A program made the translations under genes and the position numbers. The notes under the pieces were generated by a model that was not told where the DNA came from, did not search any database, and saw only the letters and a list, made by a program, of their open reading frames with translations. Positions 1,807-62,448 of a stretch of DNA of 64,000 bases are shown here, piece after piece; position 1 is the stretch's first letter, and every line of letters begins with the position of its first letter. The stretch is from the NCBI RefSeq assembly GCF_033473495.1, contig NC_088943.1, forward strand, positions 463,501-527,500, read 5' to 3'. The stretch is from Cercospora beticola (taxonomy: Eukaryota > Ascomycota > Dothideomycetes > Mycosphaerellales > Mycosphaerellaceae).

Positions 1807-5827
<4,021 letters not shown>

Positions 5828-36024: not shown

Positions 36025-37367
36025 ATGGCAGAAAAGAAGACCGTCGCTATCATCGGATCCGGCTGGGCTGGCTTCACGCTTGCACACTCACTTTCACTAG
36101 CAAAGTACAATGTCTACGTTATCTCGCCGTCTCGGACAATTCAGTACACCCCGCTCTTGGCCAGCGCGGCTGCGGGCATGTTCAACTTTCGGTATGCTTC
36201 ATCACGAGATTGGCAGATCGCAGCGCTGATATAGCCAGACTCGCCGAGGAACCTGTCCGTCGACGCAACCTGACCCACGGACTGACTTACTACAAGGCGA
36301 CGGTGGAGAGCATCGACTTTGATAAGAAGGAACTCCTCTGTCGACCTGCAGTCAAGGATATTGCAGAGCAGCATTTGCACGACGAGCATGACTTTACCTT
36401 GACGTACGAGAAATTGATCCTCGCACCGGGCTGCGACGTCGAGACATTCGGAACGCCCGGAGCGCTTGAGCATTCGTTCTTTCTTCGAACCACAGAAGAT
36501 GCCCGCCGCATCCAGCAACGCATCTTGGAAATGGTGGACGCGGCTACAACGCCTGGCATCACCGAGACTCAACAGCGTGATATCCTTCGCATTATCGTCG
36601 TGGGTGGAGGGGCAATTGGAATGGAAGCTTGCGCGGAATTGTACGACTTGTGGTACGATGACCTCCGACACGTGTATCCGCACCTCAATGGCAAGTTGAG
36701 TGTGGAGGTGCACGATGTGGCCACATCGCTTCTGGGAACTTTTGACAAGAGATTGGGCGAGTACGCGACTCAGAAACTGGTCAGCCGGGGTGTGAAGATC
36801 GAGACCGGGAGCCATATCGAGAGGGTTGAGCCCGGTGCGATCTGGACGAAAGAGCGGGGAGAGATCAAATATGGACTTCTCATCTGGGCCACGGGCAATG
36901 GCGTCAGTCCGCTTGTGAAGCAATTGGATGTCAAGAAGAGTGGCAGGCTTCAGCGTATCTCGACAGATGGACACCTTCGAGTCTTTGGATCATATGACGA
37001 GTTACTCAAAGATGTCTACGCTATTGGCGATGCTGCCGATATCGAAGGCTATTCTCTTCCGACTCTGGCTGAAGTCGCGGTGCAGAAGGCGCAGTATCTC
37101 GCGAAGAATTTGAACAAAGAAGCGTCGAATCCTGAAGCGGAGACGGAGGCTTTCAAGTATAAGCAGAAGCCGAATTTGGCGTACCTGGGGCAGCGAGATG
37201 GCGTGATTGGAGGCGAGCAGGAATGGACGACGGGGCATTCGGCCTGGATTGCGTGGAGGAGTGGTAGTATCTACCATTGGCCGAGGAGTTGGAGAAGGAC
37301 GTTGATGATTGGGATTAGTTGGTTGTTTAATTCGGTGGGAGGGAGGGATATTGCGAGGAAGTGGTAG
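36025..37367 (+). CDS. FAD/NADH oxidoreductase, alternative NADH dehydrogenase (NDH-2)/AIF-like, 2 exons
   Basis: Exons are 36025-36191 and 36239-37367. A short 47-nt intron (GTATGC, CTGAT branch, CCAG) joins MFNFR to LAEEPVRRR in frame, giving 431 aa. The N-terminal FAD Rossmann motif is IIGSGWAGF. A second dinucleotide fold is IIVVGGGAIGMEACAEL, and the FAD-contact AIGDAAD lies near residue 340. The C-terminal WRRTLMIGISWLFNSVGGRD tail is typical of external rotenone-insensitive NADH:ubiquinone reductases. No mitochondrial presequence precedes the first Rossmann fold, so a peripheral or outer-face location, or a cytosolic AIF-like role, is possible. Confidence 0.9.
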
Positions 37368-38357: not shown

Positions 38358-38852
38358 TCGTCTTTCTACGAGAATGGAAAGAGGTCAGGTGCCAACGCTG
38401 TGTGATAGGAAGATTGCATGTTAGCGTCTATGAAATGGAATTCGTAAGTGATTTTGGGTCGTGGTTGATTCTCTCCGTGGTCTAGCGATAGGACGTCGTG
38501 GCAAGTTTGGTGATTGAGAAGCCGAACAGAGTGGTTTGTTCTAGAGAAGAGACTGGAATACAATCGCAGGAAGTTGTGACGGGTCTTGGCAGACGTGTCT
38601 TCGAAGCTTCCGTCGCGGCCCACATCTCCTTCTCCTTCTCTCACACTTGCCAATTTGCGGTAAAGATATGAAAGTTGACACAATATCACAATACCTGAAG
38701 ATTTCTCCGACTGTGTCGCTGGCAACGGCAACAATGGGAGCTCCTCGGTGCCTACCACCGGCACAGAATCCAGGCCTCGGCTAGGCAAATCCTGCACTGG
38801 CCGATCTGATATATCTGTGAAAGCAGGCTAGGAATATGGCCATACCGCAGAG
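38358..38852. other. Intergenic region
   Basis: Between the hypothetical gene and the MFS transporter. No feature supported. Confidence 0.4.
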
Positions 38853-40190
38853 ATGTCTCGAGATAATCATGAAACGGCGATCGAGTTGCAGAGTCCAATA
38901 TCTCAAGACCGAACTCAAGATGACGAATCCCATGCGAACGCCCAGTCGCTCCCTCCACACGATCGCGGCAAAGCAGCATGGCGACTCCTCGCAGCAGCCT
39001 TCGTCTTTGAAGCACTCCTCTGGGGGTTTCCGTTGTCGTTCGGCGTCTTTCAAGAATATTACTCTCAGCTTCCTGAATTCAAGGATTCACCATACATTTC
39101 TGTCATCGGAACTGTGGCATCTGGCTTGTCGTATATGGCCGCACCAATAGTTATCCCGATTATCAAGCGCTACTCCAGGTATAGGCGGCATATGATCTGG
39201 ATTGGTTGGACGATAGCGCTGTTGGGGCTTGTCGCTGGTTCGTTCGCTCGCAATTTGGGAACGTTGATTCTTACTCAAGGTGTGGCATACGGCTTCGGGT
39301 TCATTGTGTTTTACTATCCGATTCTGAGTATGGTCAATGAGTTCTGGATCGCACGCAGAGGTCTCGCATATGGCATTCTTTGCAGTGCTTCTGGCGTGTC
39401 CGGAGCTGCTTTGCCGATTGGTCTGCAAGCTATGCTTCATCGGTATGGGTATCAGACTACGCTTCGCATTATCTCTGTTGGGCTTTTCGTTTTGACTGGC
39501 CCATTGATCCCATTGCTGAAAGGTCGCGTCCCGCAGACTTCAGCAGAGAATACGGCGCCAGCTAGGACGGACTGGACATTCTTGAAAAATCCGCTTTTCT
39601 GGGTCTACAGCCTCTCAAACTTGGCGATGGGACTAGGCTACTTCTTTCCATCCATCTACCTGCCATCGTACGCCACCTCTGCCGGTCTTCCTTCATCACA
39701 AGGCGCACTACTCTTGACCATCATGAGCGTCGCTCAAGTGCTAGGGCAATTCTGCTTCGGCTATCTGTCCGACAAGAGTCGCATACCCTTGAGCCTGCTC
39801 GTTACCTCCTCTGCCTTCTCAGCTGGGGTTGCTGCGTACGTCTCTTGGGGTTTAGCCAGGACTTTCGGTGTGCTCTTTGTCTTCGCCTTGATCTACGGCT
39901 TTTTTGGCGCTGGATATACTGCCATGTGGGCGCGAATGGGCACTTCAGTATCGAGTGATCTCAACGCTGCTTTCGCTGCATTTGGCTTGCTGAACTTTGG
40001 TAAGGGAGTTGGCAATGTTCTCGCTGGTCCAATCGGAGGTGCTCTCCTGCGAAATACGATCAGTGCGGGGCGATATGGCGTTGGCAGATTCGACACTGTT
40101 GTTTTGTTCACTGGCAGCTGCATGGTCATTAGTGCGATTGCCATGCTGGGTACTTGTGCACCTGCTATTAAGCGAGCAAGGGCAGCTTGA
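38853..40190 (+). CDS. MFS transporter, monocarboxylate porter (MCT) type
   Basis: A single-exon 445-aa protein. A hydrophilic N-terminus of about 40 residues leads into AWRLLAAAFVFEALLWGFPLSFG and about 12 transmembrane helices. Fungal MCT-type marks include FGVFQEYYSQLPEF, GIAYGFGF-like helix 4 sequence and NEFWIARRGLAYGILCSASG in the 4-5 region. The family moves monocarboxylates or related acids with protons. The substrate is unknown. It is not close enough to the NRPS to assign to that cluster. Confidence 0.9.
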   Translation: MSRDNHETAIELQSPISQDRTQDDESHANAQSLPPHDRGKAAWRLLAAAFVFEALLWGFPLSFGVFQEYYSQLPEFKDSPYISVIGTVASGLSYMAAPIVIPIIKRYSRYRRHMIWIGWTIALLGLVAGSFARNLGTLILTQGVAYGFGFIVFYYPILSMVNEFWIARRGLAYGILCSASGVSGAALPIGLQAMLHRYGYQTTLRIISVGLFVLTGPLIPLLKGRVPQTSAENTAPARTDWTFLKNPLFWVYSLSNLAMGLGYFFPSIYLPSYATSAGLPSSQGALLLTIMSVAQVLGQFCFGYLSDKSRIPLSLLVTSSAFSAGVAAYVSWGLARTFGVLFVFALIYGFFGAGYTAMWARMGTSVSSDLNAAFAAFGLLNFGKGVGNVLAGPIGGALLRNTISAGRYGVGRFDTVVLFTGSCMVISAIAMLGTCAPAIKRARAA

Positions 40191-45087: not shown

Positions 45088-47544
45088 TCATTTTGCACCG
45101 AAAGCAGTCGGGTAAGATATACGATTCGCCTTTTCACACCCACCATTCAGATGAGGGACCTTGCATACCCAGCAAGACTTCTTGGGGTCCGAGGGCGAGA
45201 AACGCACATGAACCCAGTGCCGACTAGCGGCCACCTGGACAGGAATGTAGAATGAAACCAGACCTGGATTCGCAATGAACTGCGCGAAGATTCGTTTTAT
45301 CGGAAGTCCAGGAGTACCGGGCCATGTCTGCACAGTCAGACGCGGTAGTCGGAATGACGCGCCAAAAGCAGCATGTATTGCGGCCACAAGATCGGTGGTC
45401 TTCACTTCCTCCTCCAAGAAGGTTGCATCGAAGAGTTTCGGCGGCTTGAAGCAAAGGTGTCGTGCGTGGAACTCATGACCACGGAACTTGATGGTTGCAT
45501 CTTTCAGACGAACCTTGGGAACAGGGAGAGATCCCTTTCTTCGGAATGTGGCCACCCACAGTCTATCGCCCAGCTCTTGTGCCTTTTCGAAGGCAGAGTG
45601 TTTGCCAAACGCTTGCCAACATGCCTCAGTCACATCCTTCGGGTCGGCATCGCTCGTCGGACATTCGGGCGTGCCGATCGGGAGCAGGAGATACTCCAGA
45701 TCGTGGTTGTCGGCCGTCGCCCGAGGCTGTGGCTCGTACTGGAGGAACGTCGGCTCTGGTGTCGCATCAGCTGCGCCAGTAGCTTTTGTCGTGAGAGTTG
45801 GGCGGTCTTGCGCACAACTTAACTTCGTCGGGCTCCGAGGGACAGCCACGACAAGCTTTCCACTGCCTTCAGTGGTCTGGCGCGGTTATCGCTTGGGTGC
45901 AGATTGTCGCTCAGGTACAGATTGTTGAATAGGCTGCGGTTGACTACTTGGCCGCGCGACAGCAACGGGAAACGGAGTGCCAGCTCGGACCATGGGCGAA
46001 ACGCTCGTGGACGCAGTGGCGGCACGCTTCCGACTTCTTCTTGTGCTTTGTTGTTCAGGTCCAGTTCGTTGCATAGGCTGCGGCTGAGGAGGTGGTGGTG
46101 CCGCAGTAAGAGGAAATGGAGTGTCGGCTCGGATCACAGGCACCCCTTTGGGATGTCTTCGGTTCATCTGGCTCTTCGCACAAGAGATCGCCTGTGGGGT
46201 ACGGGGGCGAAGCGATGGAAGCTCTGATGCGATTTTCTGAATGGACCAGCCGAGATTGATGCCTTTGAGGAGTACTCTCTTCTCCGCCTTAGACCATGGA
46301 ATGTTCCGCGGATAGCCGTCCTGCTCTGCAGCCTCGTGAGAGTCGGGTACATACTGACGCTGTAGGGCGGAAGATGTCGGTTCACTTGGGATTTCGAGTT
46401 GTTCTGTAGCCTCGCGAGAACTGTGCACGTTGTGTTGTTGTGAAGCTGAAGGTGTCGCTTCCGCAGGCTTTCTGCTGTCACCATCGTCAGAAGTGTCATC
46501 GTCACTTCCACTGCTGTCGCTGGAAGACGTCGAAGAATCATCTCGAACGGCTGTAGCAGGTATCAAGCTGGCCTGGTGTCGCTTCAACAGGTCCTGGCCA
46601 GACTTTTGTACCGGAGCCCTTGAGCCTCTGTGGAGCGCAGCCAGAAGTTCTTGCCACTCGTACTTCTGCGCATCAGACAGCGCTGACCATTCGAGCAGCT
46701 GTGTGGAAATCGCGTCGCTCGGCCCCATAGAGTTTGATCGGCGTACGTGAAAGTTGAAGATATCTTGGCCTTCTTGGAAATGTTGTCTGGCATATGCTAT
46801 CACCTTTTGCAAGTCTCGAAGTGCCAGGAAAGGCGCAAGATTGAATCCTTGCTTCGATCTCATCCTGCTTTCTTCGTTCTCCGTATCCACGCTCTGGTCA
46901 ACTCTTTTCCTCTTAGGCGAGGCCTCACTTGGCGCGGGATCAGATGAGTGCCGCTTACGTTTTCCAGACGGAGAAATCTCAGATGCCCACGCGGTGATAC
47001 AGTCTGTTGCGCTTCCCAGGTGTCTGCTCTCGAATTCGGACCGAATGGCCAGGAGGACTGTGTTAAGATCCTTTTCGGACTCGATAACGCGAGCCAGGTT
47101 ATGTGCTAGCGTCAAGGCCACTTTGCCTCGAACATGTTCAACCACAAGAGTCAATTTGCCTCGAGGTGTGCGCTTCTGCAAGAGTTCCTTCTCAATGAAT
47201 GCAAATGCCTGCGATCTTAGAGTCGTGTCAGACTGATCCGACTTGGACGCGAGTACATGTTCTGAGATCATCCCAACAGCAGTGTTGTATAGCGGCGTAG
47301 ATGAATCATACTTGCGGACGATCTTCAACGCCGCTCTCGTTTCTTTGGAGATCTTCGCAAGGCGAGGGGTGCATTCCACTTCTTGTAATTGAGTTGAGGC
47401 GGACATCTTTGGTGCTGGTGTCTCGCGTGTCTCCTGAGCAGCAGGATTTTTCTGTCGATTCGCGGTGCCGAACACCTCCTGCTTGACCTCGAGGTACACG
47501 TCATCGTCTTCATCAGATTCGTGCTGCTTTGCTTTCTTGATCAT
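45088..47544 (-). CDS. Q1: large two-domain P/Q-cluster protein with SANT-like motif and zinc knuckle
   Basis: A single frame of 819 codons is broken only by one TAA at 45886. A 42-nt in-frame intron (45877-45918, GTACCT..CAG) would remove it, giving exons 45919-47544 and 45088-45876 and 804 aa. Order: acidic N-terminus; helical block (residues 60-160); 'HVRR' domain near 240-330 (FNFHVRRSNS, KYEWQELLAALHRG); acidic Ser/Asp linker; SANT/Myb-like IPWSKAEKRVLLKGINLGWS near 410; two proline-rich tandem repeats; and a C-terminal domain ending in a CCHC knuckle (CWVCKVPHLNGGC). The first half matches Q2, the last 250 residues match D. The downstream part contains no Met, so it must be joined to the upstream part. 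It is divergent to P1. A nuclear, nucleic-acid-related role is inferred; the family is unnamed. Confidence 0.75.
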
Positions 47545-48040
47545 CGTAGTGTCATACCATCAACAGACGCGCTGTGTGCCGAAAACTTGGATTTCTCTGT
47601 GTGTGCTCCAGCCCCAGCTTTGTCGTCGCCAGAGTTACTGTTTGACAAGGTGCGCACGGTATTCGTCTCCATCTCGTTCATGGTGCCTTGTCCACAGGTC
47701 GCGTCTGTCTCAACAGTGCTTGTGCGCAGGCAAGTATGGGACTGGACCTGGACGGATTCATCTCCTCCAAACCATGCATCCATGTCCCACGAAGTCGACT
47801 TTGTGCCAGTGTGCCTTTTGCATTTGTGCTGCAGCACTGCCGAAGCGGCATCAACGAGAGCACGTTCGATAAGGCCAATGGTTCCGCAGGCAATGCAGAC
47901 GATGCATGTGAACGCCCTCGACTGGCACCTTTGACGGCTGTTACAGGTCGTAATATGCTGCTGGGATCTGCTGTTTGGATGCGGAGCCTGTAAGACGAGG
48001 GTTTGAGCTTAAACCTCACTTCAACACATTGCCGCTCTGA

Positions 48041-48449
48041 ATTCAAGCCCATGGCTCGAAATCTAAGGAGAGTGACTGATTCCAGCTAGGGAGAGTGACT
48101 ACCCCTCACATTGAAGGCACTTTCAAGGCGTTTTGGCGACACTCTTGAATGTACTTCGGACAAGTGAGCCGAGCTCGCACGATACCCGAGCGCGTAAGGC
48201 ATAGGCCCTTGAATAGATAGCAGATGTCATTTAGGCAACAAGCCAGCGCAAAGCGCCGTAAGGCGCGCACGAGAGAGGCGGCAGTGTCCCTCGAGGAGTA
48301 GCAGTGTCCCTCGAGAGATAGCAGTGTCTCGAGAGAGGTGGTAGTGTCTCTCGAGAGGGACATTCATTCAGAATTGATGAGAATTGAACCAAGTCACTCT
48401 CCCTAGCCGAGACTCTCCTTGGTCATTTCGGATTTCGAACCCATTGCTT
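48041..48449. mobile_element. MITE-like inverted-repeat element (about 0.4 kb)
   Basis: A perfect 16-bp inverted pair, GCTAGGGAGAGTGACT at 48085-48100 and its reverse complement at 48392-48407, is embedded in longer imperfect arms (about 48041-48101 and 48391-48449). The arms share a TTCGAAATC-like stretch and repeated GGAGAGT units. There is no ORF inside. The size and structure suggest a MITE or foldback element; the exact ends and a target duplication are unclear. Confidence 0.45.
48281..48360. repeat. Tandem repeat, four units of about 20 bp
   Basis: Four imperfect copies of a GCAGTGTCCCTCGAGAGATA-like unit lie head to tail inside the inverted-repeat element. Confidence 0.8.
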
Positions 48450-48849
48450 AGCATTGGCTGGGTTCCAGCACTTCTACGAAACATGGATATGTGTTGGCCC
48501 AGGAAGACGCGTCGAAAGTGTGACTTTCCGCGTTCGCGTTCGTACACTACGTCGTGATTGTTGCTGTAATGTGTATTCTGCTTGTCCAAGATACGACTGT
48601 TGTGGACTGGATTATGCTTGATGTCACACATTATCTGGAGGCGGGCGGCGATTCAAGACCGCGTAGAGAACCGAGATCTCAGAAGATATTCGCCCGCCAC
48701 CCGTGCACAGAAACAGAAATCGCAAGCACCGAGTCCAGGACGAGCTCACTTTGGTCCAATGCCAGCTCGACAGCGTAGGTCCTGTTCCTTCGGATGAAGA
48801 ACACGTAACTGACAGGAACCGAGAGCATCCTTCGCAGCGAGCCCACATC

Positions 48850-51541
48850 ATGAACAGTATCGATGAAAGGAATCTCGCGGAAACAATCGAGCGGGATGAC
48901 AGTATACCGGCATCAACAATCGGTCGTAGAGCTTCGGCTCGACTGCAAGCACGCGAGCCCTCAATGACTGAGCGATCTGACACCAGATCTCCGACTGTCT
49001 CCTGGTCGTCTCAGCTGTCCTCCCGATCCGCGTCCACTGCATCGACTGCGCTCTCGAGCGTGTCCGACAACGAATCAGACGCAATCGTCGGAGAAGACGA
49101 CTCGGATCTGCTCAGCCTGGATGGTAACCGGCGTGGCAACGTCAAAATTTCCGTCGAGCGTGATTTTGATGTCGACAGAGTACTAGCCAAGAGAGTGGAG
49201 AATGGTGTCGTATGGTACAAGGTCAGGTGGAAGCCTATGAGGCTGCCAAGGATCCAAACTGAATTGAACGAAGAAGGCCAATGGACAGTGGAGATAGATA
49301 ACAGCAAGTGGCGAGGTGTCCTGGAGGTACGTCCGGTAGACTTCTTCACATGTGAGGTTGTCTGGAAGGACAGTGAGAGGCCAGTATGGCGACTCGGTCA
49401 TGCCATAGCGAGCATCGCAGAATGGCACGAGCGTAATCCAGAGGACATTGACGCCAATGAGCCACAATTCTGGCTTGGTCACAAAGATAGTGGCCTCGCT
49501 TCGTCGACGACCAGATATGTGGTGCCGGAGCACACCGACTTCTTCATTCACGAGGACGAAGAGTACTTTGCCCCCAAGAATATCGATCACACGAAACCTC
49601 TGCTGGAATACTGCCTGCGAAGAAGCAAGCTGAGTCCATCAGCCGTTAGACTGCTCAACAGACCGATTCGGAGGCCACTCATATTCAGTCAACGTTTTCG
49701 AGACTCTGGCAAAGAAATTGAAATCGGCCGTCCAGGGACTTTCAAAGCGCTCCTGACATACTGTGTCGGAGAAGTGCGAGAGAAGCCGTGCTCGATGTGC
49801 GCGAGGGGAAATTCTGCATTCCCGTATTGTGTTTATTTTGAAGGAGTGGCCGAAGGCGTCTGTGTCGGGTGTGTCGTACGCGGCGGATGCGAGACGAGTT
49901 GCGAGTCTCACAACTCCCGTAAGTTTCGTCCGGTGTTGCGCAGGAGTTATCAGACTGATCGCGCTAGACCGTGCATACCACGACGGAGCTAAGCATCAGT
50001 CAGTCCGACACGAAGACGTTCGATCATCTCCAGCAGGCAACCGTGATCTTGATGTGTCGGCCAGCCTAAGTAATGCAAGGTCCGGAATCACCGTTGGAGG
50101 ACAGGTGGGTGAACAGGTTGATAGTGAAGTGACAGGCAGCATGCCGGTGGAGGACCCCTTCGAACACTTCTTTGAACCAGCTTCGGAGGTCGCAAGTAGT
50201 TATGACGAGGACTTTCTTGACCCAGCTGCGACTACCACGAGCAATCATGGCAATGAAGACCTGCCGAATGCGCCCCGCTTCCAAAAGCCGTATACGCGCA
50301 CTCCAACGGCAGAGCTGTACGCATCGACGCCACGACCTCCGAAACTCTTGCAGCTGGTAGCAGGAGGATGTATAGTGGGTGAGCATCCCACAATGTCGAC
50401 GCGATCTCCTACACTGTCACAGCAGACCGCAGCTTCTTATGTTACGGCAGCGTACTCAACGCCACCTACTCAATCTCAGGCGTCCTCGGAGCGAGCAGCG
50501 GAGCAAGTGCCAGGGAATCAGACGTTTGAACGAGCCGACCAGGAGCGATGTGCGCCAGGAATCCAGCGTCGGATTCACAATCCTGCGATACCTCAATCCG
50601 GTGCTTCCAAGATGACGAGCACCAAGCGTATGATGAACTTGCCCATTCGATCTACGCCAGCACCGCGATCATCATCCACGTTGCGCGCGTCACCGGCAGA
50701 TAGCAGAGTCTCTCAGACGGATTCGGCGAAAGCTCCCTCGTCAGTCTTCCATACTCCACCGCAATCGACTGTGGAGGTCCAAAAGCTTGGTAAGCAAGGG
50801 GAAGAGCCGGTGCTCCCAGTGTATGGAAAGCCAGATGAAAGGTCAGCCACAAGGCCAGATGTGAGCTCAAGTGGTAGATTAGACCGAACGCCAGATCTCA
50901 GATTGGCCGAAAAGCCAGATGCGCAGCCGGTTGATATGCCAGATGACGGACCAGGTAAAAAGCCAGAGATCGAACAGAAGGATGGTGGCAAGAAGCGCGC
51001 AGCACCTGATCATGCCCCAGAAGATGTGACATCCTTCAAGCAGCAAGAGCAACCTGCTCCCGAGTCTGATGCCCATCAAAGCAAACGCGTCCGCCACGCG
51101 TCCTCCTCGTCACCGCGCACCAAGTCCGAAACCCACTCCGCGACCAAAATCCTCTTCCTCAACGATCACCTTCACTGCACTCTCGGCCGACCTTGCATCG
51201 ACCCGATTGCCACCTTTGCCGACTACACTCCTCCAAGAACTCCTCTCGTGTACAACGATCGCGAATTCGAGGAAAACGAAGCGACTGTGGAAGAAGTCCG
51301 GTACATTGTGAGCCAGTGCCAGTGCACAAACGCGGAGATCTTGTCCAAGTTGGCGAGGGGAAGTTTTGAGAAGCTGTGGCGTAAAGGAGAACTTGAATCG
51401 GAAGATGGTGAAGAGTGGTCGGTGGAAGGGAATTTGTCGGGCAGGTTTTGGCAGGAGTTGAACAAGGCCGTGAAGCTGGTTTGCCCGGTGAGAGGTAAAG
51501 GGAAAGGAGGAAAGAAGAAGGTCGTCATTGATTTGACGTGA
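48850..51541 (+). CDS. P1: chromo-like / six-cysteine module protein (P family), 2 exons
   Basis: Exons are 48850-49918 and 49968-51541, with a 49-nt intron (GTAAGT, CTGATC branch, GCTAG), giving 880 aa. The first true ATG is 48850. Order: Ser/Arg-rich acidic leader; chromo-like segment near 109 (VDRVLAKRVENGVVWYKVRW); central motif VRLLNRPIRRPLIF; cysteine module C314-x2-C-x9-C-x10-C-x2-C-x9-C351; a disordered stretch of about 400 residues; conserved C-terminal box near 765 (HCTLGRPCIDPI) and FWQELNKAVKLVCP; basic tail. Paralogues are P2 and P3. It is transcribed away from Q1. The chromo-like fold suggests chromatin or nucleic-acid contact, but only the shape is seen. The cysteine module probably binds zinc (inference). 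Confidence 0.82.
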
Positions 51542-52985
51542 TGTTGTTTGGGTGGTTTCCTGGGAGCTTCGTTTGGATCGAGTGGACTTTCTGTAGGATC
51601 ATTGTTGCCTGGAAAAAAGAGTGAGGTGAGATCGGTCACTTTGCTTTTTCCTCAGCTTGTGTGAATTGAGGCCTGGGCACACGTTTCAAGGCCAAAGACG
51701 TTCTGCGCAGGAAATTTTCAGATTGCCTTGTCGCCTGCCACCCGGCCTAGGGAAACGCGCTTGCTGTGTAGAATTTCTGAACGCCGAGTTCTGTTGCGAC
51801 AGGCACGTGCATCCGAATTGAGGTTGTTGTTGATGTTGGAAGGCGGCTCCTGTGTTCGGCCAGGAATTACGTTACTGTAGAACTGGCTTCCGAACGCTGC
51901 ATCCCACCCCCACCCGAGTGTGATTGGGTGACAGCTTCTTTCGCCTGTCGAATTCCTGCAGTATTCGAGAAAGTTTCGAGTGTTGCACTTCCCACGTGCT
52001 ACAACTGGCTGCGTGCCGCATGTTTCATAGATCAGTGACCAGAAGCGGCAGGAGTGGCAGTGCTGCACCTTCCGAAATCGTGCCTTAAGAACTTATTGAC
52101 ACCGTGATGTCTCCTGCGACTGGAGCGCGAGCATACAAGAAAAGTTCATGGCGGTCAGAAATCCGCTTGTGAAAAGCCGTCGACCTGATAGTAAGTGCAG
52201 CTCGAGTAGCTCGCTTACCGCTGTCTGGGTAGCAAGTGGTCGGCAGTCTTCGTCTTGCAACGTAACTCTTGTTCCAGATTCGACTCGGACGGTCTCCAGG
52301 CGGATATTTGAACAACCGATTGATGAATGGTCGAGAGTGTTTGGGACAAGATGAGATGAAGTCGGAGTTAGCGTCTGGAGAACACTTTCCCAAACTTGTG
52401 TAACTTAAGGCTTGGAGACCCACCTTTGACGTCAGATTTCGAAGTCGTGAAACATTCAGATGCTCTTCTCAAACAAGTGCAATTCCGCGGTTCGTAAAAA
52501 TATGGGCGCGTTGCATCTTCGTTGTTCATCGCGTCTTTTGCAAGTCGAAGAGTGGTCGGACGCAGGAGCTTTGGCGGGACCTGCCGACGTCGTGCAGCTT
52601 TCTAGCGAGCTTTTCGCGTATGCTCTGGCTGCTACAGAGGTCGATGCAGATGTTCTTTCACCGGTATGGTAACGCTGCGACAAAGATATGACACCTTAAC
52701 AAGACTTGTCGTCTTCTCTTGCCGCGATGTTCTGATGTGCCTTCCTACTGGTCGCCGTCAGCCGAGGAGACGAAAGAACCTACCAAGACCACAAGCAACG
52801 CGAAGGACAAGAAAGTTGTTAACCAAAAGATCTTGTGCTTGCACTGCATTGCATCCAGACTGTCGCCCAAGTCGAGCCATGTACAAGAACACCCAAGAAG
52901 AAAGATTATGCGTGACATCATGACCCTTCCCCGAACCATCCAAGCAAGCGACTCCGACCAAGAGAGATCTTTTTGTATACCAGTA
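51542..52985. other. Intergenic region
   Basis: About 1.4 kb between the 3' end of P1 and the 3' end of the membrane protein gene. Frames seen (for example 52085-52423 minus) lack support. Confidence 0.4.
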
Positions 52986-54210
52986 TTACACCCACGAGCC
53001 ATCTTTGCCATCGCTACTGCTCTCGCCGACGCTCTTTTCTTGGACCATGACCCGCTTTCCTTTCCCGGATGCAGCATCATTTGGTCCCCTCTCCACGATA
53101 TCAGCGGGTGTTTCTCCTCGCGCCAGAGGATGAACGCCTTGTCTCGATTCGTTGCGGCTGCTGCTGCGTGAGTAGCCATAGCCTGCGGGCATAAACGCTT
53201 CTCGCGTGCGTTGTGGAGAGTTTCTCCCGCTGCCAGATGGTCCGGCGGCCGCCATAGGGATTGATGCTGTGGATCTGTGTCGAGGTCCCCGTCAGTTGCT
53301 GCGTTCAATTCTTTGCGCGCCAGGACTGCGAGTTTGGCGATCGTGTCCCGGGAGGCTGGATCGGATACCTTATGCGGTGCTGCGGCCGTCGACTCACCTG
53401 TTCATGTTGTTGTCACTCATGGGAGGTCGGGTCGTGATACCCTCGTTGAAGCCTCCTGTGATCTGGTCCTGTTTGCGATCGTGCCGCCGTTTGAGCACGA
53501 CAGCGCCCCATGCGATCAGTGGAAATGCGATCACCAGAACGATGAGCATGATGATCCATTTCTGCAGAAGATGTCAGTACTGCGCATGCACTCTCCTGTC
53601 CACAAAGAGTCCAACTGCGATCCTCGTCTCCACGACCACCTCCACGGAGACCTGGAAGACCGTAGCCAGCTTTTTGAAGGGCGCTACTCACATAGTGATT
53701 CTCCCACCACGTCCCTGGATCGTCCGCGCCTGTGCTCACTCCACTGAGCGTATTGGCTCCTGTTGCGCCTGAAGAGCCTGAAGAGCCTGAAGAGCCCGAG
53801 GAACCTGAAGACTGCGTGGTCTGTCCGCCCGCTGCGTTCCCTCCACCATTTGCTGCGGTGCTATCCGCCGTTCCTGACCCCGCGTTTGCGTGTGCTGATG
53901 CACCATTGTCGCTGCCGCAGTTCGTGTTATACCATGTGCTGACTTGCTGCAGATCGGCCCCCGTACAAGTGGAATCGCAGATGCCCGTGGCTGAAGACCT
54001 CAAGTTCACCAGGTAGGCGGATTGGCAAAAGCAGATCCAGGCGCTCTGCGAGGCCACATCGGTTGCCGAGCAGGCCTGGGCGGCTTGCACGAGCAGCGGA
54101 CAGCTCTGTCCACATGCCGGCAGATTGCTATTGCCGTTGGTGAGAACTCCCTGTTGTGCGACCGCCGCCGTCGCGAAGAGCGCGAGCGCGAGCTGATGGT
54201 ATCGCCCCAT
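52986..54210 (-). CDS. Secreted-domain, single-pass membrane protein with 8-cysteine N-terminal domain, 3 exons
   Basis: Exons are 53692-54210, 53398-53561 and 52986-53274. Introns have CTGAC branches and GTGAGT donors, giving about 323 aa. A signal peptide (MGRYHQLALALFATAAVAQ) leads an ectodomain of about 75 residues with eight cysteines (ACGQSCPLLVQAAQAC, WICFCQSA, ICDSTCTGADLQQ, NTNC), similar to CFEM-like fungal surface domains. A Gly/Ser-rich stalk follows, then a transmembrane helix (WIIMLIVLVIAFPLIAWGAVV) with a basic stop-transfer (KRRHDRK) and a disordered cytoplasmic tail. A cell-surface sensor or wall-anchored role is likely (inference). It sits between module 1 and module 2 of the P/Q cluster but shows no similarity to them. 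Confidence 0.82.
53768..53810. repeat. 9-bp coding minisatellite (Gly-Ser-Ser repeats)
   Basis: GCCTGAAGA units repeated four to five times with decay at one end. They encode the (GSS)n stalk of the membrane protein, so length variants would stay in frame. Confidence 0.8.
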
Positions 54211-55043
54211 GGCCGCCGCACCCTCACTTCTGCTGTTTGTAGATGGGTTTCGAATTCGATCTCGATCGGATCGCCCGGAAGGGAGTGCGGAGATGGGAGT
54301 GCTGCTGCCGAACCTCGTGAGGTCGTCGCGGATGGGGCAGCCGTATGCGGGAGGTGTCAACCGTGGAATGTGCTGGCCGGCCGGGTCGTTTCGCGCGCGC
54401 CGTTGGAGAGGATGTCGTTCGAGTTGTCGCCGGGCAAACGAGCGACTATGGTGAGGTTGCACAGGGCGGCGTGCTCACAAGCACATCCGGAGGCGGCGGT
54501 GGTGCAGGTGCAGGAGAAGGCGCGAGCGAGGTTGAGCGGGCGGGCGTACGAGAACGGCCATGTTCCTGCACTGGGCAGAGCGGGAAATCTGGAAGCAACA
54601 GTTCGTGTTCGTGCAGGCGACCCAATCAGGCGTGCGCAATGCGCAGGGGTTCCCGTGGAGAGCCGCACGCCATGGATGCGCCCGTGATGAGGTCCAGCGA
54701 CGCCATCGCACGACAGTCGCGTGGGAGGGAGTGTGTGCGCTGCGGATCAGTTATTTGTAGAGAGTAGTGTGAGGAGTGACGGACGAGGCTGCACTTGCGC
54801 AATTCGCAGGCGCAGGAAAGAACGACAGCGCGACTGCCGTCGGTGTGTTGTGCTTCTCGGCCCGATGCGGCCGTTGCTCCACCTCGCCTGCCATGATTTC
54901 CACCATTTCCGTGGTCTTTCCGTCGCCGTACACAACTGCTCTTCTGCCTGATCACAGCACAACAAACACGACCTGGACGTTTTCGCCCTTGCAACGGCCA
55001 CTGACAACTTCCCATATGTCCATCATGAGCAGAACGGCCCCAT
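54211..55043. other. Intergenic region
   Basis: Promoter side of the membrane protein gene and 3' flank of P2. GC-rich frames on both strands have no domains or start support. Confidence 0.4.
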
Positions 55044-56883
55044 TCAGTCTAGCTCAATACACTCTGGCGCATCAGGAGATGGCTGCCCAGGAGCCGGACA
55101 ATACAGCCTCACGGCCTGGTTGAGCTCTTCATACCAGACCTTCGCGATGCACTCCGCCTTGCTCAGCAACGACTCATCACTCATCGCCGTCAATTGGGAC
55201 TCCAAGTACAGCTGATACATTTCTTCGAGCGCCTCTGCCTGGTCACACGGACAGCAGCGCAGGACATCATTGACGTCTCGATCGCTGGCTTCTCCATATG
55301 CGAATACACGGTTTCGCTCCACTCGCACCGGTTCATCAGAAGGTGTGTCCCACGCTCCGACGATAGGGTCTCGGCATGGACGACCGAATCGCGCGCTGGT
55401 GCAAGTGCGGTGCTTGCCGATCCACGAAGGACTCTTCATTCGTGCATCGCGTCGACGTCTTTTCGAGGGGCCAGGCGTGGGTTCCGACGATTGCTTGCGG
55501 TGCTCGGCGCTCATGGCATATCAGTCAGTGAGAGCACAGCTCTTCGCGCATCGTTTACTTACCTTGGGCTCTCGAGCTTTGGTTTGGTTATCGAGTCCCG
55601 AGGATCGTCGCAAATGCCTTGGTCTTCAGTCCTCGCAGATTCAGGCGTGACAAATGCTGTAGACGGATCCTGCCTGCCAAGAGTAGAGGAAGATCCGACG
55701 GGCGTCGCGCCGCCTGCCTGAATTGGATCTTCATCGCGATGCGCTGGGCCTGCATGGTCTGCAGTGTCCGGACTCACGAGCAAACCTGCTGAATCAGGTC
55801 GGATGGAGTTCGCTGCCTCTGGACGCTGTGCTTGCTCCACGGCTTCTCCATTTGCACTTGAACCAGCTCCTTCATCTGCACTTGGGTCAGCTTCCAAAAG
55901 CGCGGGGTTCCAGAGTGACGGCCGGTCGCCACGCCGATTGTGATGCCACCACTGGCAATTCGATGTCTCAGAGATCGATATTGCACAATTGACACAAGTT
56001 CCTGCTGCCGCCGTATCGTCAATCACACTTCGCACACATTAGCATTGGTTCGCGCAAGCGGCACGGATGTCGAAGCATACCATTTGGGGAGTGGCCCATA
56101 TCCTGCTTCACATCGCGTGCACATGTCAACACCTCGGGCCAGTCCGGTCACGTAGATTAACAAGAGTCGCAGATGGGATCGCAAATTGATGCCCTTTTTT
56201 CTGCTCGACTCGAGAGACTCAATGTATGTGTCCGTAAAGACAAGTCTCTGCCTCACAGGCATATTCAGATACCGCACCGAGGCCTTTGACGCCATGCCAT
56301 CAAGCGATCCAAAAAAGTTTGCAGAGATGGCAAGAGTGTAGTCTCTGCCTCGCTCGGGCACGAGGTAGCGCCCATCGACAAGATCCAACAGCGTTTCAGG
56401 TGCTGGCTCGCCCTCTGCCGGCTGCACCAAAGGGCCAAGGTTTGACACGCGCCACCATTTACCCTCCTTTCTCCTCACATCATCGAGATGCATTTCCTGA
56501 TACTCGGAGACAGCGTTCATGGCCCCCGCCAGGCCCCACACACTTCTCCTGCGGAAGAAGACGTCAGCTGCATCCAGGCGCAAATGCTCCTTTGTCGCTC
56601 ACCATGTCGACTTCCATTCGATGGACCACAACTCTTCACCGGAGCCTTCATGCACGCCGACCTGAACACGCCTCCTGACTCCCTTGGTCCGTTCGCCGTC
56701 TATGTCGACCCAAATAGTGTTGTCTTCGTCGGTCGAGACCTGCGAGGAGCGCACTGTTGTGGGCTGCCACTCGGCTTTGAGCTCGATGACGCCCTGATCC
56801 GTATATCTCTTGTTGATGATTCTCGCTATCGGCCATTGTCGTAGCTGTGGATGTCTTTGATCTGGCGTCGGCTGCCGCGACAT
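55044..56883 (-). CDS. P2: chromo-like / six-cysteine module protein (P family), 4 exons
   Basis: Exons are 56603-56883, 56081-56548, 55563-56027 and 55044-55509. All three introns are 53-54 nt with GCTGAC, GCTAAT or CTGACT branches, giving 559 aa. Order: chromo-like segment from residue 17 (WPIARIINKRY, LKAEWQP); central motif VRYLNMPVRQRLVF; cysteine module C237-x2-C-x9-C250-x10-C-x2-C-x9-C274, whose third Cys codon is built across intron 2; acidic linker; C-terminal box (CTSARFGRPCRDPI) and VWYEELNQAVRLYCP. It matches P1 along its whole length except for a shorter disordered linker. It is divergent from Q2 with a 437-bp spacer. The agreement of the spliced cysteine module with P1 and P3 supports the exon model. 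Confidence 0.82.
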
Positions 56884-57320
56884 CGATCGCCTCGGTCACT
56901 CTGCCGCCGGATAGCCTCGACGACTATGCCTCCTCGATCGAGCTTTCGTCGACCAGCAAACAAGCGACTTCTCCAGAAAGCACGCAGTTCCCTGGATGAA
57001 CTGGGTCTTGGCGCTCCCTGTGCCGCCGACACTTGCCCAGGAAAACATCGACCTGACAGTGAGGCACAACGAGCGCTGGAGAAGTGTTCCCGGAATCACT
57101 AATTGGAGCCCCTCCTCTCAATTGATCTGGTGCAGTGCATACCCATGCTCTTGCATGGTCTGGCAATCACAGCCCCTGTGAGTAATTTGAGCCTCATCTG
57201 GGGCATTCTTTGGAGTCGAGCTTGACGAGACGCAAGATGCATGCAATCGAAAGGCAGCGAACGACAACCTTATTTCCCTTCCGCCCTCCACGTCGCGTTG
57301 TGTAGCACTGTCACGCCATC
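56884..57320. promoter_or_regulatory. Divergent spacer P2/Q2
   Basis: A 437-bp head-to-head promoter region. A 58-codon plus-strand ORF (56926-57102) lies inside it and might be an upstream exon or uORF of Q2; no good donor was found. Confidence 0.4.
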
Positions 57321-58520
57321 ATGCGCATCTACCCCACTGAAACCAGGCACGAGCTGTGCTTATGGAATCCAATCGACATGCAGAACTGCATCGGCAACTG
57401 CAAACCAAGTTGGGCACTCGTCAGGCACAAGGGAGCTTCTCCATACCAGCGAAAAGGCAATGTTCCAGCCCGCTTCGGCGAGCGCTCTCTTCAACATCGG
57501 TGGAGGCGAGTATCTTCGATGCGCACCGCATGCCATACGCTGACTTCAGCAAAGAGCAGTACCTCGGAATCAACGAGCACAGAAGAGCTCAAGACGTCGC
57601 TCAATCTCCTTGTGGCTGAGCCGCCAGTATCATGCTTCTTCGCGATGGCGCTTGGCAAGGTCCTTTGCCACGCACTCGGCCATCGCGTCTCCTGCTCGCC
57701 CGCCGACGTAGATCCACAATGGATCGACGATGCGTGCGACAGCCTGCGGGAAGCAGGCGCCGACAAATGTCGCGTCGAGCTGGTTGCTAGGCGGCTCCGC
57801 GCACTTGCAATGGCCCATCTGCCTGCTCTCATGTTGGATGTGATTCAGAATGTTGGAGAATTGGAGTCCTTCCTTGCAACGATGAAACAGCAATGGCGCG
57901 AAGCTCATCCAACTCTATGCGCTGAATCATCAATGCATCCTCAGCCTATGGTGAAGAAAGCTGCAACTGAGCGGAGCGCGAGTCCGGCTCACTCGTCGTG
58001 GAAGGGAAAGGAGACTGCAGCCTCACCAGACCACGCACCAGCCAAGTTTCAACCTCGGAATGACTTCGACCCAGTGCTCTTCGCCGCCTCCGATCAAGGC
58101 CAGCGACAAGTCCTCGCGCGGAAATGTTTTTCTCTTCCGATCGAGCTCTTCTTCTACCACGTGCGCCGAGCACTGCGGCCTGAACACGACCCGTCTAGCG
58201 AGCAGATGAGCTTGATCTGGTCCAAGTTGACCGAACAGCAAACAGTACAGTGGCAGGATCTATTCGACCAATTGTACAGCGGTGACACTGCCGCTGCCGA
58301 GAGCGCTGGAACTCAACTTCTGGTTGAGCACGAAGTGTTGCAGAAATTGAAGCCCACGACTACGAATCTTTCGTCGCAGGAGTTGCCGCATCGCAGTCCT
58401 GAGACAGCGCTCCTCTCGAAGCAGTCAGCGCAAGGTCATGAACACCCGCTTGCACGGCCTGCAATGCGCTCGACGGCTCGAGCGTCACGTCAAGGAGCTA
58501 CAAAGAGTCCTTACTTCTGA
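57321..58520 (+). CDS. Q2: 'HVRR'-domain protein of the P/Q cluster (399 aa)
   Basis: A single-exon ORF starting at the first ATG. The N-terminal ~85 residues are low-complexity and basic. Two blocks match the first half of Q1: a helical block (SLNLLVAEPPVSCFFAMALG; LRALAMAHLPALMLDVIQNV) and the domain around residue 280 (FFYHVRRALRPEHDPSSEQM; QTVQWQDLFDQLYSG). The SANT-like motif and zinc knuckle of Q1 are absent. Instead the knuckle domain is in the adjacent convergent gene D. No known family name is recognised. The exact N-terminus is uncertain. Confidence 0.72.
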   Translation: MRIYPTETRHELCLWNPIDMQNCIGNCKPSWALVRHKGASPYQRKGNVPARFGERSLQHRWRRVSSMRTACHTLTSAKSSTSESTSTEELKTSLNLLVAEPPVSCFFAMALGKVLCHALGHRVSCSPADVDPQWIDDACDSLREAGADKCRVELVARRLRALAMAHLPALMLDVIQNVGELESFLATMKQQWREAHPTLCAESSMHPQPMVKKAATERSASPAHSSWKGKETAASPDHAPAKFQPRNDFDPVLFAASDQGQRQVLARKCFSLPIELFFYHVRRALRPEHDPSSEQMSLIWSKLTEQQTVQWQDLFDQLYSGDTAAAESAGTQLLVEHEVLQKLKPTTTNLSSQELPHRSPETALLSKQSAQGHEHPLARPAMRSTARASRQGATKSPYF

Positions 58521-58703
58521 GGCAGAGCACACAAGATGTTCGCAAACGATCACTGTATAAGGGTAGATTCAGGACAATGAAGGCTACCGCGACTTGTGAG
58601 GAAGGTTCACAACGAAAGACAGTGCTTGAGGGTGTTCCGCTTGCATTGCAATCTGGTCTTTTTGGTGCTGCATACGCTCGTGTGCAAGAATGCAGGGAGT
58701 AAC

Positions 58704-60017
58704 TCATATCAAACGCTCCGCACGACTCCAGCATCTTGCCGCATGCCGCTTACCACAGACGTGACAATCTTCGTAAGGCGACCGCGCCTTGAACCACGCC
58801 CAAATGATCTCACCATTTCGAAGCAGCAGTGGCACCCCGATTCGGAGCAGCTGCGGACACATTTCAAACGAAATCACAAACTCTTTTCTCTTCCCCATTC
58901 CTTGTCTATACAACTTCCGCGGCCCGTGTGCAAATTCGGGAAGATTGTGTTGCATGGCAGTGACCATATCTCTGTCGTCCACGCGATCGTGGTCGTCGCT
59001 CCAGAAGAAACTGCACGGAGAGTGCGGAGGTGGTCGTTCGGCTTGCACAAGGCAGCCGAAGAGCATTACTTGCATTCCTTCGGACTCGTTGGCTTTGCGG
59101 GCGGTTTCGAAGAGGATGGAGTAGGTCCAGTCGTTGTGTTGTGTGCTGCAGACGGAGATTTGATCGCCCCATGCTCGTGTGCAGCTGGAGGAGAGCTGGG
59201 TACAGCCGTAGATGCTTCTGCGCTTGAGCAGTTCTTCTTCGGAGAGTTCGAGGATGAAGAGGAGGCGGCGGGGGTCGCGGGTTATGTTTTGGGAGCTGAT
59301 GAGGACGGGTGGGGGGAGGTGGTGGTGGGTGAGGAGGTTGGAGTATTGCGCGTCGCGGTCGTCTGGAGAGTTTTGTTCCTCTTCTTTGATGACGCTTGGG
59401 GAGCGCTTTGGCTCGGTTTTCTCTTCTGCGGGGAAATCTTGGGTTTGGGTTCCGGTGCTGTGGAATGTTGGGTGGTGGCTTTCTTCGGTCTCTTGTTGCA
59501 GCACCGGTGGGAAGGTTCTCCAGTCCTCATTTGGCTCGGGTTCGGCATGGCCAGCAGCACTTCCTGCCAGCTGCCATGGCTCCTCATCCGGACTCTGGTT
59601 TGTGGACAAGCGATTCACCTCGAAAGGTGGTCTTTTCACTACCGCGACCTGATTCAGATCTGGTGTCAATCGGTACAGCTCATCCTCCATTTCGTGTGAG
59701 ATGTCTTTTGCAACACCGGCGAGGTCCATTTCTGCAGTCGCGTCGTGCGGATCCTCAAGCGTGGCGTACGTGGGTGCTGTCTGCTGTTCTTGTTTGGCTG
59801 GGATGGAGTCCTCTATTGCTCGATGTACTTCTGCCATGCCTTGCCACATCTGCAGGAATCGCTCTCGGAACCGTCTTGCTGATTCCATACGTGCTGCTGG
59901 AATTGAGGATCTGGTTGGACTTCTTCCACGCATTGTTGCATGCATTTCTGCGCCCGAATGCAGAGCGCGTCGAATGTCACGACCTGCAATTCCCTGGGAC
60001 ACTGACGCGTTCGGCAT
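58704..60017 (-). CDS. D: zinc-knuckle protein of the P/Q cluster (437 aa)
   Basis: A single-exon ORF; the first true ATG is at 60017. The N-terminal part is hydrophilic, with an IKEEE stretch. The C-terminal ~200 residues match the C-terminal domain of Q1 in order: a RRLLFILELSEEELLKRR segment, an FFWSDDHDRVDD segment, the FVISFEMCPQLLRIGVPLLL strand pair and a final CCHC knuckle (C418-x2-C-x3-H-x3-C429) against CWVCKVPHLNGGC of Q1. The layout, a globular domain ending in a CCHC knuckle, recalls LINE ORF1 or Gag-type nucleic-acid-binding proteins (inference). It is divergent from P3 and convergent with Q2. Confidence 0.72.
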   Translation of the reverse strand: MPNASVSQGIAGRDIRRALHSGAEMHATMRGRSPTRSSIPAARMESARRFRERFLQMWQGMAEVHRAIEDSIPAKQEQQTAPTYATLEDPHDATAEMDLAGVAKDISHEMEDELYRLTPDLNQVAVVKRPPFEVNRLSTNQSPDEEPWQLAGSAAGHAEPEPNEDWRTFPPVLQQETEESHHPTFHSTGTQTQDFPAEEKTEPKRSPSVIKEEEQNSPDDRDAQYSNLLTHHHLPPPVLISSQNITRDPRRLLFILELSEEELLKRRSIYGCTQLSSSCTRAWGDQISVCSTQHNDWTYSILFETARKANESEGMQVMLFGCLVQAERPPPHSPCSFFWSDDHDRVDDRDMVTAMQHNLPEFAHGPRKLYRQGMGKRKEFVISFEMCPQLLRIGVPLLLRNGEIIWAWFKARSPYEDCHVCGKRHAARCWSRAERLI

Positions 60018-60397
60018 TTGCAACGTTGTCGGCGTCTTCCTGGGTTAGGTTTATCGCTGGAGGGAGTTGCCCAGGCACGCACGAGCGGGACATTTCGCAG
60101 AGAAAGTAACTTCCTCCTGGGCAAGGCTCTAAATGAAAACATTGGTGACAAGACATTTCGTTGCGGAGGCTTTTCCTGATGCCAGGGTGCCCGGCTGGTC
60201 ATTTTGCAGACTTTCCCACGATGTCACGCTCTGTAGGCTTGTCCATTCGAGCATTTGCGGCAGGCCATGCTTGTTCTTCCGATGGTTCACGCGTCTCGCG
60301 TCGGTCACGCTTTTCGAATTGTTTAGCGACTTCAGCATCTGCCGGTGGTTGGCATACGATACGACTTTGCTGAAAGTGCTTCGCCACCGCAACGCAC
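60018..60397. promoter_or_regulatory. Divergent spacer D/P3
   Basis: A 380-bp head-to-head spacer. On the minus strand an open frame of about 66 codons starts at 60399, antisense to the P3 start. It is charged and could be an upstream exon of D, but no donor/acceptor pair fits. Confidence 0.4.
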
Positions 60398-62448
60398 ATG
60401 ATGGGTCGAGCATCAAAACATAGCGCCACGGATCACTTCAGTACCATGGAATGGCCAATTGCTCAAGTCCTAAGAAAGAAGGTCGATGGAGACAGGACGC
60501 TGTACCTAGTCCGATGGAAACCTACAATGCTCAATCGCAACGAAGTCCACCTCGGAGACAATGGCATCTCATACGCCTTCTCCAATGGTCGGGAATGGGA
60601 AATCGAAGACGTCACGCGCTGCAGCGGCGGTGTGTACGAAGTGACCTGGACCGACACTTGGCAAGAATACAGCGACCTAGCCGGAACAGAAGACGACTTA
60701 ATCGCCGACTTTGAGGCCGGCGTCCTCCCGCCTGAAGAAGCTGCGGAGTATGCGTCAATGGAGATGCCGTTTGATATCTTCGTACCGGATCCCAATGCGG
60801 ATTATACCGATAGTTTTGTGGCGAAGCTCACGGATGAGTTGAGGAATGGGGAGGCGACTCGGAGGAAGTGGCAGAAGGTTCCGATTTGGGTGGCTTGTTT
60901 GGATTTGCCTACGCGCAATCGGTTGGTGTTTCGGAAGGGGTATAGTGATCGGAGGAATGTCGTGAATATGTTGCCGGATACGGCGAGGTTGGAACATCGC
61001 AGGATTTTGTCGATTCATCGGACGGGGAATGCGATGGCTAGGGGGTGTGAGGATTGTAGGGAGGGGAAAGGTGAGCGGGGCTATCTACTGTACATGTTGT
61101 GTACAGGTCTGACTGTGCATGCTGACCGTTGTGTGGCGGCAGGTGCATTGCGGCGGTGTGTGGTCGATCGGCATGGTTCGGCGTTGAATGGGTCTTGTAC
61201 GAACTGCAGTATTGGGGGGAGGATGGCGACGTGCTCGTTCAGTGGCAGAGGTGGGTGCTTGCTTTTCCTTTCGTCCTTGTTCCTCTGGCGTCGGTCGATG
61301 CAGGCCGCTGCAGATGGTTCATCCACTTCGCTTTCGTCTCGCAGAAAGAGCCATTTCATCCTCCCATTTCCTCTCGCTGAATGCGTTCACGATGAATTCC
61401 CTGATCGCAATCAAAGCTCATGCTGATCACCGCAGTGCGGAAAGTGAGCCACGAGGCAGCACGCACGAGCAATGCAATTGTCAAGATCAAGAAGGAGTCT
61501 CGTGATCAGTTTGGCAAGGCTCTGTACAAGCCGGCAGCTCCTTCGGCAAAGCGTGCACTCGAGTTCGAAGACACATCCTCGGCAGTCAAGAAGCGAGTTG
61601 CACGTCCTATAGCTTTTACCACATTTACGCCGCCAGCTACAGACCACAATGATCGTCTGGCTTCGGAGCAGCTTCTGGACGACATCAAACGTGAGACGTC
61701 CGTGTTCACCGGCGTTTGGGATGATATGGCGGCCATCAAACGTGAGACATCCGTGTTCACTGGGGCATGGGATGACATGTATGTGAGTAATCACATTGGT
61801 GGCCCTGCCGACTGGAGCTCTCCAAATGTCAAGGACGAGGAGGGACAGGTCCGAGGTGATGATGATGACGATGACGATCTGAAAGTGATGGATGCGGATG
61901 CAGTCGAGCCTGGCGAGCAGAATCATGTTCAGGAGATGGAGATCAGGCAGCCTTCCTCGAAGCGCGCGCCGAAGCCGTCGATGGATGAGGCGGAGGAACG
62001 CAAAGCTCCATCAGTCTCGCTACCCAAAGCGGACGCAAAACCTCGCAGCGCTGAGGAAGTACGTCGCAATCTGCTGGCGCGGTTTCAGAATCCTGTCAGC
62101 TCGAGCAATGCTTTGCCGCCATCGGGAAGCCGAAGGTCGCAAAGGAGACGTGAAGCGAAGCGTGCACGCAAGGCAGCGACGACGGCATCACTTTTGGAAG
62201 TCAGCTCAAAGCCGGCGTCACAATCCTCCGATACGTCCACCAACGCTGTGACTATGACGGACTTGGATGTGGAAGCAGCACAAGATCTTCTGGACCGCTG
62301 TCTTCCGCAACAGTGGAACATGTTAATGATGGCTTGGGAACTGTGGATGCAAGAGTGTAAGGAGGAAGGCAAGGTGCAGCCTTTCACGAGTGGTTATCAC
62401 TTCTTTGCGGCGGTTTGGATGGATGAGTTGAGGGCTGGTGCGGTGTAG
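60398..62448 (+). CDS. P3: chromo-like / six-cysteine module protein (P family), 3 exons
   Basis: Exons are 60398-61070, 61143-61250 and 61436-62448. Introns are 72 and 185 nt with GCTGAC and GCTGAT branches, giving 597 aa; a start at 60446 is also possible. Order: chromo-like segment from residue 17 (WPIAQVLRKKV, LYLVRWKP); central motif VACLDLPTRNRLVF; cysteine module C217-x2-C-x9-C230-x12-C-x2-C-x8-C255, joined across intron 1; an acidic linker with a 17-residue tandem repeat; a KRARKAA-type basic stretch; and a C-terminal WNMLMMAWELW helix ending in FFAAVWMDELRAGAV, which aligns with the ends of P1 and P2. The GRPC box of P1/P2 is missing. It pairs divergently with D. Confidence 0.8.
61681..61782 (+). 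repeat. 51-bp coding tandem duplication in P3
   Basis: Two copies of a 51-bp unit (start offset exactly 51) encode DIKRETSVFTGVWDDMA and AIKRETSVFTGAWDDMY. The copies differ at a few sites only, so the duplication is fairly recent. Confidence 0.9.

What the first reader, a model, noticed from the sequence alone, without database searches (positions are those of the whole stretch)
45088..62448. Three head-to-head gene pairs form an apparently undescribed two-component (P/Q) family
P1, P2 and P3 share chromo-like N-terminus, central motif, six-cysteine module and C-terminal helix box. Each is transcribed divergently from a gene carrying one or both of two other domains: Q1 (both), Q2 (first), D (second). 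The recurrent divergent pairing within 17 kb suggests co-expressed partners that duplicated as modules, perhaps a chromatin or genome-defence, self-recognition or selfish system. Pairing and motifs are seen in the sequence; function is inference.
Basis: partly seen in the sequence, partly recalled or inferred. Interest (0 to 1): 0.9.

Follow-up and report, generated by a model that had tools for sequence, protein, structure and literature searches.

The report
Three paired chromatin-reader-like genes, Cercospora
A leaf-spot fungus carries one compact, old locus of six genes arranged as three back-to-back pairs, each pairing a chromatin-reader-like protein of unknown function with a partner protein; related species keep these genes as neighbours, but what the pairs do is not known.

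Summary
The window is from Cercospora beticola (contig C9). The six genes and three divergent pairs are real (Q1|P1, P2|Q2, D|P3). P1, P2 and P3 are true paralogues: an interrupted chromodomain-like fold, a central linker, and a six-cysteine module that is the known Pfam family DUF3716, not a new domain. The C-terminal box is shared clearly by P1 and P2, weakly by P3. Q1 and Q2 share a helical domain. The claimed second domain shared by Q1 and D is weak: no pairwise match, but a nearly full-length collinear profile alignment. Every gene has an orthologue in at least one other Cercospora; locus tags are neighbouring in C. berteroae and C. kikuchii and partly in C. zeae-maydis. P1, P2 and P3 form separate clades, so the duplications predate these species. 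No further copy was found in this genome. Best reading: nuclear chromatin- or DNA-associated proteins whose P and partner products act together; location, binding and function are inference. A selfish or recognition reading has no positive support but is not excluded: a second C. beticola sequence exists here for only three genes (1-2 residue differences). Two related species' annotated P1 lack DUF3716.

The parts
45088..47544 (-). Q1, 804 aa, exons 47544-45919 and 45876-45088 (42-nt intron); equals C. beticola CB0940_10880
46564..47343 (-). Q domain of Q1 (helical), shared with Q2
46156..46311 (-). [not shown]
45088..45702 (-). C-terminal domain of Q1 with C-x2-C-x3-H-x4-C near its end; possible distant relative of D
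47545..48849 (.). divergent intergenic region Q1|P1 (1,305 bp between start codons)
48850..51541 (+). P1, 880 aa, exons 48850-49918 and 49968-51541
49156..49464 (+). P1 chromo-like module
49747..49902 (+). P1 DUF3716 six-cysteine module
51155..51487 (+). P1 C-terminal box shared with P2
51521..51538 (+). P1 last residues VVIDLT; V(V/I)DLT at or within two residues of the end of 6 of 6 P1 proteins, resembles a SUMO-interacting motif (motif recalled)
53413..54474 (-). ORF between P1 and P2 without Pfam match; not part of the family
55044..56883 (-). P2, 559 aa, exons 56883-56603, 56548-56081, 56027-55563, 55509-55044
56473..56841 (-). P2 chromo-like module (residues 15-119; contains an intron)
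55955..56163 (-). P2 DUF3716 module (split by an intron)
55095..55424 (-). P2 C-terminal box
56884..57320 (.). divergent intergenic region P2|Q2 (437 bp)
57321..58520 (+). Q2, 399 aa, single exon; start uncertain (orthologue models start later)
57639..58340 (+). Q domain of Q2
58704..59933 (-). D, about 409 aa (start 59933 fits two of three orthologue models; 60017 is an upstream ATG; the listed 381-aa protein starts later)
58704..59285 (-). conserved C-terminal domain of D with C-x2-C-x3-H-x3-C near its end (4 of 4 proteins)
59934..60445 (.). divergent intergenic region D|P3 (512 bp; 428 bp if D starts at 60017)
60446..62448 (+). P3, 581 aa, exons 60446-61070, 61143-61250, 61436-62448; equals RHO25_012452
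60446..60721 (+). P3 chromo-like module
61010..61240 (+). P3 DUF3716 module (split by an intron)
62255..62445 (+). P3 C-terminal helical box, weakly similar to that of P1/P2

Best explanation
One old locus of three duplicated divergent gene pairs that makes nuclear, chromatin- or DNA-associated proteins. Each P is a reader or scaffold: an interrupted chromodomain-like fold at the N-terminus that would bind a histone tail or another peptide, a six-cysteine (probably zinc) DUF3716 module, a disordered linker with basic clusters and a helical C-terminal box. Its divergent neighbour makes the partner: Q1 (helical Q domain, possible helix-turn-helix, knuckle-like C-terminus), Q2 (Q domain only) or D (knuckle-like domain only). 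The shared intergenic region keeps a pair co-expressed, and P and partner form a complex that targets or modifies gene expression. Shown: homology, similarity of fold, pairing, conservation of the genes. Inferred: nuclear location, co-expression, P-partner binding, histone binding, and the effect on expression.
Confidence: 0.45

Rival explanations
1. Ordinary segmental duplication: one divergent pair was copied twice and the genes have since drifted to separate roles; neighbours may share a promoter but their products do not interact.
For: Paralogues are deeply diverged (P cores 23-31% identical); Q2 and D share no detectable similarity (94 of 500 shuffles as good); no 9-mer is shared by the three intergenic regions and shared 8-mers are 2 against 0.3 expected, maximum 2 in 40 shuffles.
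Against: The genes stay neighbours by locus tag in other Cercospora species, although this alone does not show interaction.
Confidence: 0.3
2. Selfish, killer or self/non-self recognition locus, with a layout like multi-pair mating-type loci: paralogous divergent pairs encode nuclear proteins that must match or mismatch.
For: Geometry is like the paralogous divergent HD1-HD2 subloci described in PMC8305134 (passages seen). Uneven, partly fast divergence: P1 63.3% and Q1 45.9% identical between C. beticola and C. kikuchii while D is 83.1%. P1 of C. kikuchii and C. berteroae share a form without DUF3716.
Against: In the three genes for which a sequence from a second C. beticola assembly was listed, P1, P2 and Q2, 2, 1 and 2 residues differ; for P3, Q1 and D the listed match is on the window's own contig, so there is no information. 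No homeodomain or toxin-like domain in the Pfam scans. Each gene keeps its own orthologue between species.
Confidence: 0.14
3. Domesticated retroelement or transposon pieces (chromodomain from an integrase, knuckle from a Gag-like protein, transposase-like helix-turn-helix).
Against: No reverse transcriptase, integrase or Gag match in the Pfam scans of the six genes; spacing is not the classic C-x2-C-x4-H-x4-C (recalled); own-genome protein searches return only this locus apart from one chance hit; the longest direct repeat in the region is 94 nt inside Q1.
Confidence: 0.08

Closest known systems
Pfam PF12511 DUF3716
   Same: P1, P2 and P3 carry it above the curated cut-off
   Different: The two other DUF3716 loci found in this genome (C7:488424, C3:2547720) have no P, Q or D similarity at E<=0.05 in 10 kb around them
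Chromodomain proteins (HP1, MPP8, Chp1, Rhino, CHD)
   Same: First strands match in sequence (best E 1.1e-4); fold alignment covers a whole chromodomain
   Different: An insertion of roughly 45 residues with a second invariant Trp; third cage aromatic missing; below the Pfam cut-off
Basidiomycete HD mating-type loci with paralogous divergent HD1-HD2 pairs (PMC8305134, passages seen)
   Same: Several paralogous divergent pairs in one locus, with some pairs incomplete
   Different: No homeodomains; ascomycete; each gene keeps its own orthologue between species; allelic divergence hardly sampled
Fungal Zn(2)-Cys(6) cluster (PF00172)
   Same: Two C-x2-C halves each followed by a third Cys (resemblance by eye)
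   Different: No PF00172 match at E<=1 in P1, P2 or P3

Membership tests
DUF3716 (PF12511) | score above the gathering cut-off of 22 bits | tested here: met
   26.0, 25.4 and 36.8 bits in P1, P2 and P3; a match at E<=1 in 10 of 13 family members
DUF3716 (PF12511) | six conserved cysteines | tested here: met
   all six present in 10 of 13 members, among them window-species P1, P2, P3; absent in P0019, P0021 and P0022
Chromodomain (PF00385) | score above the gathering cut-off | tested here: not met
   13.0 and 16.6 bits against 25.1 in P1 and P3, no match in P2; matches at E<=1 in 6 of 13 members, best E 0.026
Chromodomain (fold) | three-stranded sheet plus C-terminal helix | tested here: met
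   [not shown]
Chromodomain methyl-lysine reader | three-aromatic cage (positions recalled from HP1) | tested here: not met
   position 1 aromatic in 12 of 13, position 2 Trp in 13 of 13, position 3 aromatic in 0 of 13
Zn(2)-Cys(6) cluster (PF00172) | Pfam match | tested here: not met
   not listed at E<=1 for P1, P2 and P3
HD-type mating locus | homeodomain genes | tested here: not met
   no homeodomain at E<=1 in scans covering all six genes
HD-type mating locus | several paralogous divergent pairs | tested here: met
   (third partner, D, only doubtfully paralogous)
HD-type mating locus | highly divergent alleles within a species | tested here: inconclusive
   1 to 2 residue differences in P1, P2 and Q2 against one other C. 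beticola assembly; no second sequence for P3, Q1 and D
Retroelement Gag/Pol | reverse transcriptase, integrase or Gag domain | tested here: not met
   no such match
P-partner protein complex | physical interaction of the paired products | not testable with these tools
   no complex prediction or interaction data available

The most novel reading that the evidence does not exclude
A previously undescribed multi-pair nuclear system of Mycosphaerellaceae in which three dedicated, co-inherited reader-partner pairs (interrupted chromodomain plus DUF3716, with Q or D) form parallel complexes for silencing or genome defence, with the fast-changing P1/Q1 pair under conflict or recognition pressure.
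Probability: 0.2. Interest if true: 0.8.

Novelty: new variant of a known kind. Interest (0 to 1): 0.52.

Why it matters
DUF3716 is a domain of unknown function by its Pfam name: full-text searches of the paper library for it gave no paper, and PF12511 one passing mention. Linking it to a chromo-like fold and to a conserved neighbouring partner gene gives a first testable functional context. A locus that keeps three diverged reader-partner pairs side by side, with orthologues in several Cercospora species, would be an unusual arrangement in an ascomycete (my judgement, not a search result).

Full report
WHAT IS THERE. The window lies on contig C9 of a 36.1-Mb, ten-contig genome. Six genes lie between 45088 and 62448 in the order Q1(-) P1(+) [one other ORF(-)] P2(-) Q2(+) D(-) P3(+). 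My spliced models for P1, P2, P3, Q1 and Q2 have the same lengths as public records and are 99.5-100% identical to them. For D the database lists a 381-aa protein without source or name, identical over its length; three orthologue models begin earlier, and two of them fit a start at 59933. Distances between start codons are 1,305 bp (Q1|P1), 437 bp (P2|Q2) and 512 bp (D|P3 with D starting at 59933; 428 bp with 60017, as used).

IS IT MORE THAN CHANCE. P1, P2 and P3 are paralogues over the N-terminal core: local scores of 212, 111 and 175 are reached by 0 of 500 shuffles each, and tblastn of P2 finds P1 at 3e-20 and P3 at 5e-10. Q1 and Q2 share a domain (0 of 500 shuffles; E 5e-10). With seven genes placed at random in order and strand, all three P genes have a divergent Q-like 5' neighbour in 64 of 17,920 arrangements; this count treats D as Q-like, which is itself uncertain.

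The C-terminal box is clear between P1 and P2 (0 of 500) but not between P3 and either of them (31 and 82 of 500). A profile of the P1/P2 boxes against three P3 proteins gives 56 collinear columns, a score reached by 5 of 299 column shuffles and a length reached by none. D against the Q1 C-terminus gives nothing pairwise (187 of 500 shuffles as good; no tblastn hit at E<=0.05). The profile alignment spans 162 of 193 columns, its score reached by 8 of 600 shuffles and its length by 0 of 600; the tool's own probability is only 0.5-2.5%. I treat D as a possible, unproven relative. D and Q2 share nothing detectable (94 of 500 shuffles as good).

CONSERVATION. Three protein searches found orthologues. 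C. berteroae: P3, D, Q2, P2 with tags 10263-10266 and P1 with 10268, 5 of 6 genes. C. zeae-maydis: D, Q2, P2 with tags 103205-103207 and P3 and P1 with 89167 and 89170, 5 of 6, all with the same listed contig length. C. kikuchii: D 83900, P1 84300, Q1 84400, 3 of 6. C. zeina: P1. Septoria linicola: P1 and P2 only. Tag spacing in C. berteroae and C. kikuchii fits the window's order with one extra gene between P2 and P1, but tags do not give strand. The searches are word-based, and the third used a chimeric query, so genes not listed are not shown to be absent. In a tree of 13 P proteins (drawn with midpoint root; the Septoria P1 branch is long and flagged) the P1, P2 and P3 clades have support 100/100, 99/99 and 100/100, so the duplications are older than the Cercospora species sampled, and P1/P2 older than their split from Septoria. 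In the window's own genome, single-protein searches return only this locus, apart from one rejected hit; these searches read exon by exon and score a limited number of candidates. Two other DUF3716 loci have no relatives of the other parts in 10 kb.

EVOLUTION. Divergence is uneven: between C. beticola and C. kikuchii P1 is 63.3% and Q1 45.9% identical over aligned residues while D is 83.1%; against C. berteroae P1 is 63.4%, P2 85.5%, Q2 88.3%, P3 77.3%, D 83.8%. Fast change of both members of one pair would fit co-evolving partners, but it rests on one species pair, the P1 figures include the part without DUF3716, and the C. kikuchii Q1 model is shorter. I have no genome-wide rate to compare with. 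Within C. beticola, a sequence from another assembly was listed for P1, P2 and Q2 only (2, 1 and 2 differences); the matches for P3, Q1 and D lie on the window's own contig and say nothing about polymorphism.

MECHANISM AND VERDICT. The best-supported reading is a locus of nuclear chromatin- or DNA-associated proteins, with P as a chromo-like reader or scaffold and Q or D as partner, kept together because each pair is co-expressed. Homology, similarity of fold, arrangement and conservation of the genes are shown. Nuclear location, co-expression, binding and any role in silencing or defence are inference. Self-recognition and selfish readings rest on an analogy of layout with homeodomain mating loci (PMC8305134, passages) and on uneven divergence, and have no direct evidence here. 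In the paper library DUF3716 is absent and PF12511 appears once in passing, and six neighbouring C. beticola locus tags give no paper, so I found no description of this locus; that is a statement about those searches only.

Noticed in passing
21999-30287 (-), with 31491-32933, 35877-37367, 38832-40190 and 14584-15798: A non-ribosomal peptide synthetase ORF (2 AMP-binding, 3 condensation, 2 carrier stretches) near a fungal transcription factor, a pyridine-nucleotide oxidoreductase, an MFS transporter and a Zn-cluster regulator: looks like a secondary-metabolite cluster beside the P/Q locus.
   Followed up: partly
1929-4472 (-): Long ORF that reads like a KatG-type catalase-peroxidase (by eye, not searched).
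   Followed up: no
53413-54474 (-): ORF with cysteines and a short CCTGAAGAG tandem repeat (53757-53812) between P1 and P2; no Pfam match; a tag gap of one in C. berteroae fits its presence there.
   Followed up: partly
49747-49902 (P1) and 61010-61240 (P3), compared with P0021, P0022 and P0019: Annotated P1 of C. kikuchii and C. berteroae and P3 of C. berteroae lack the DUF3716 module: real loss or annotation artefact is unresolved.
   Followed up: partly
45904-45997 and 46048-46141: A 94-nt direct repeat (73% identical) inside Q1; the predicted 42-nt intron begins within the first copy.
   Followed up: no
58581-59699 (+): A 372-codon open frame antisense to D; probably an effect of codon composition (guess).
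   Followed up: no
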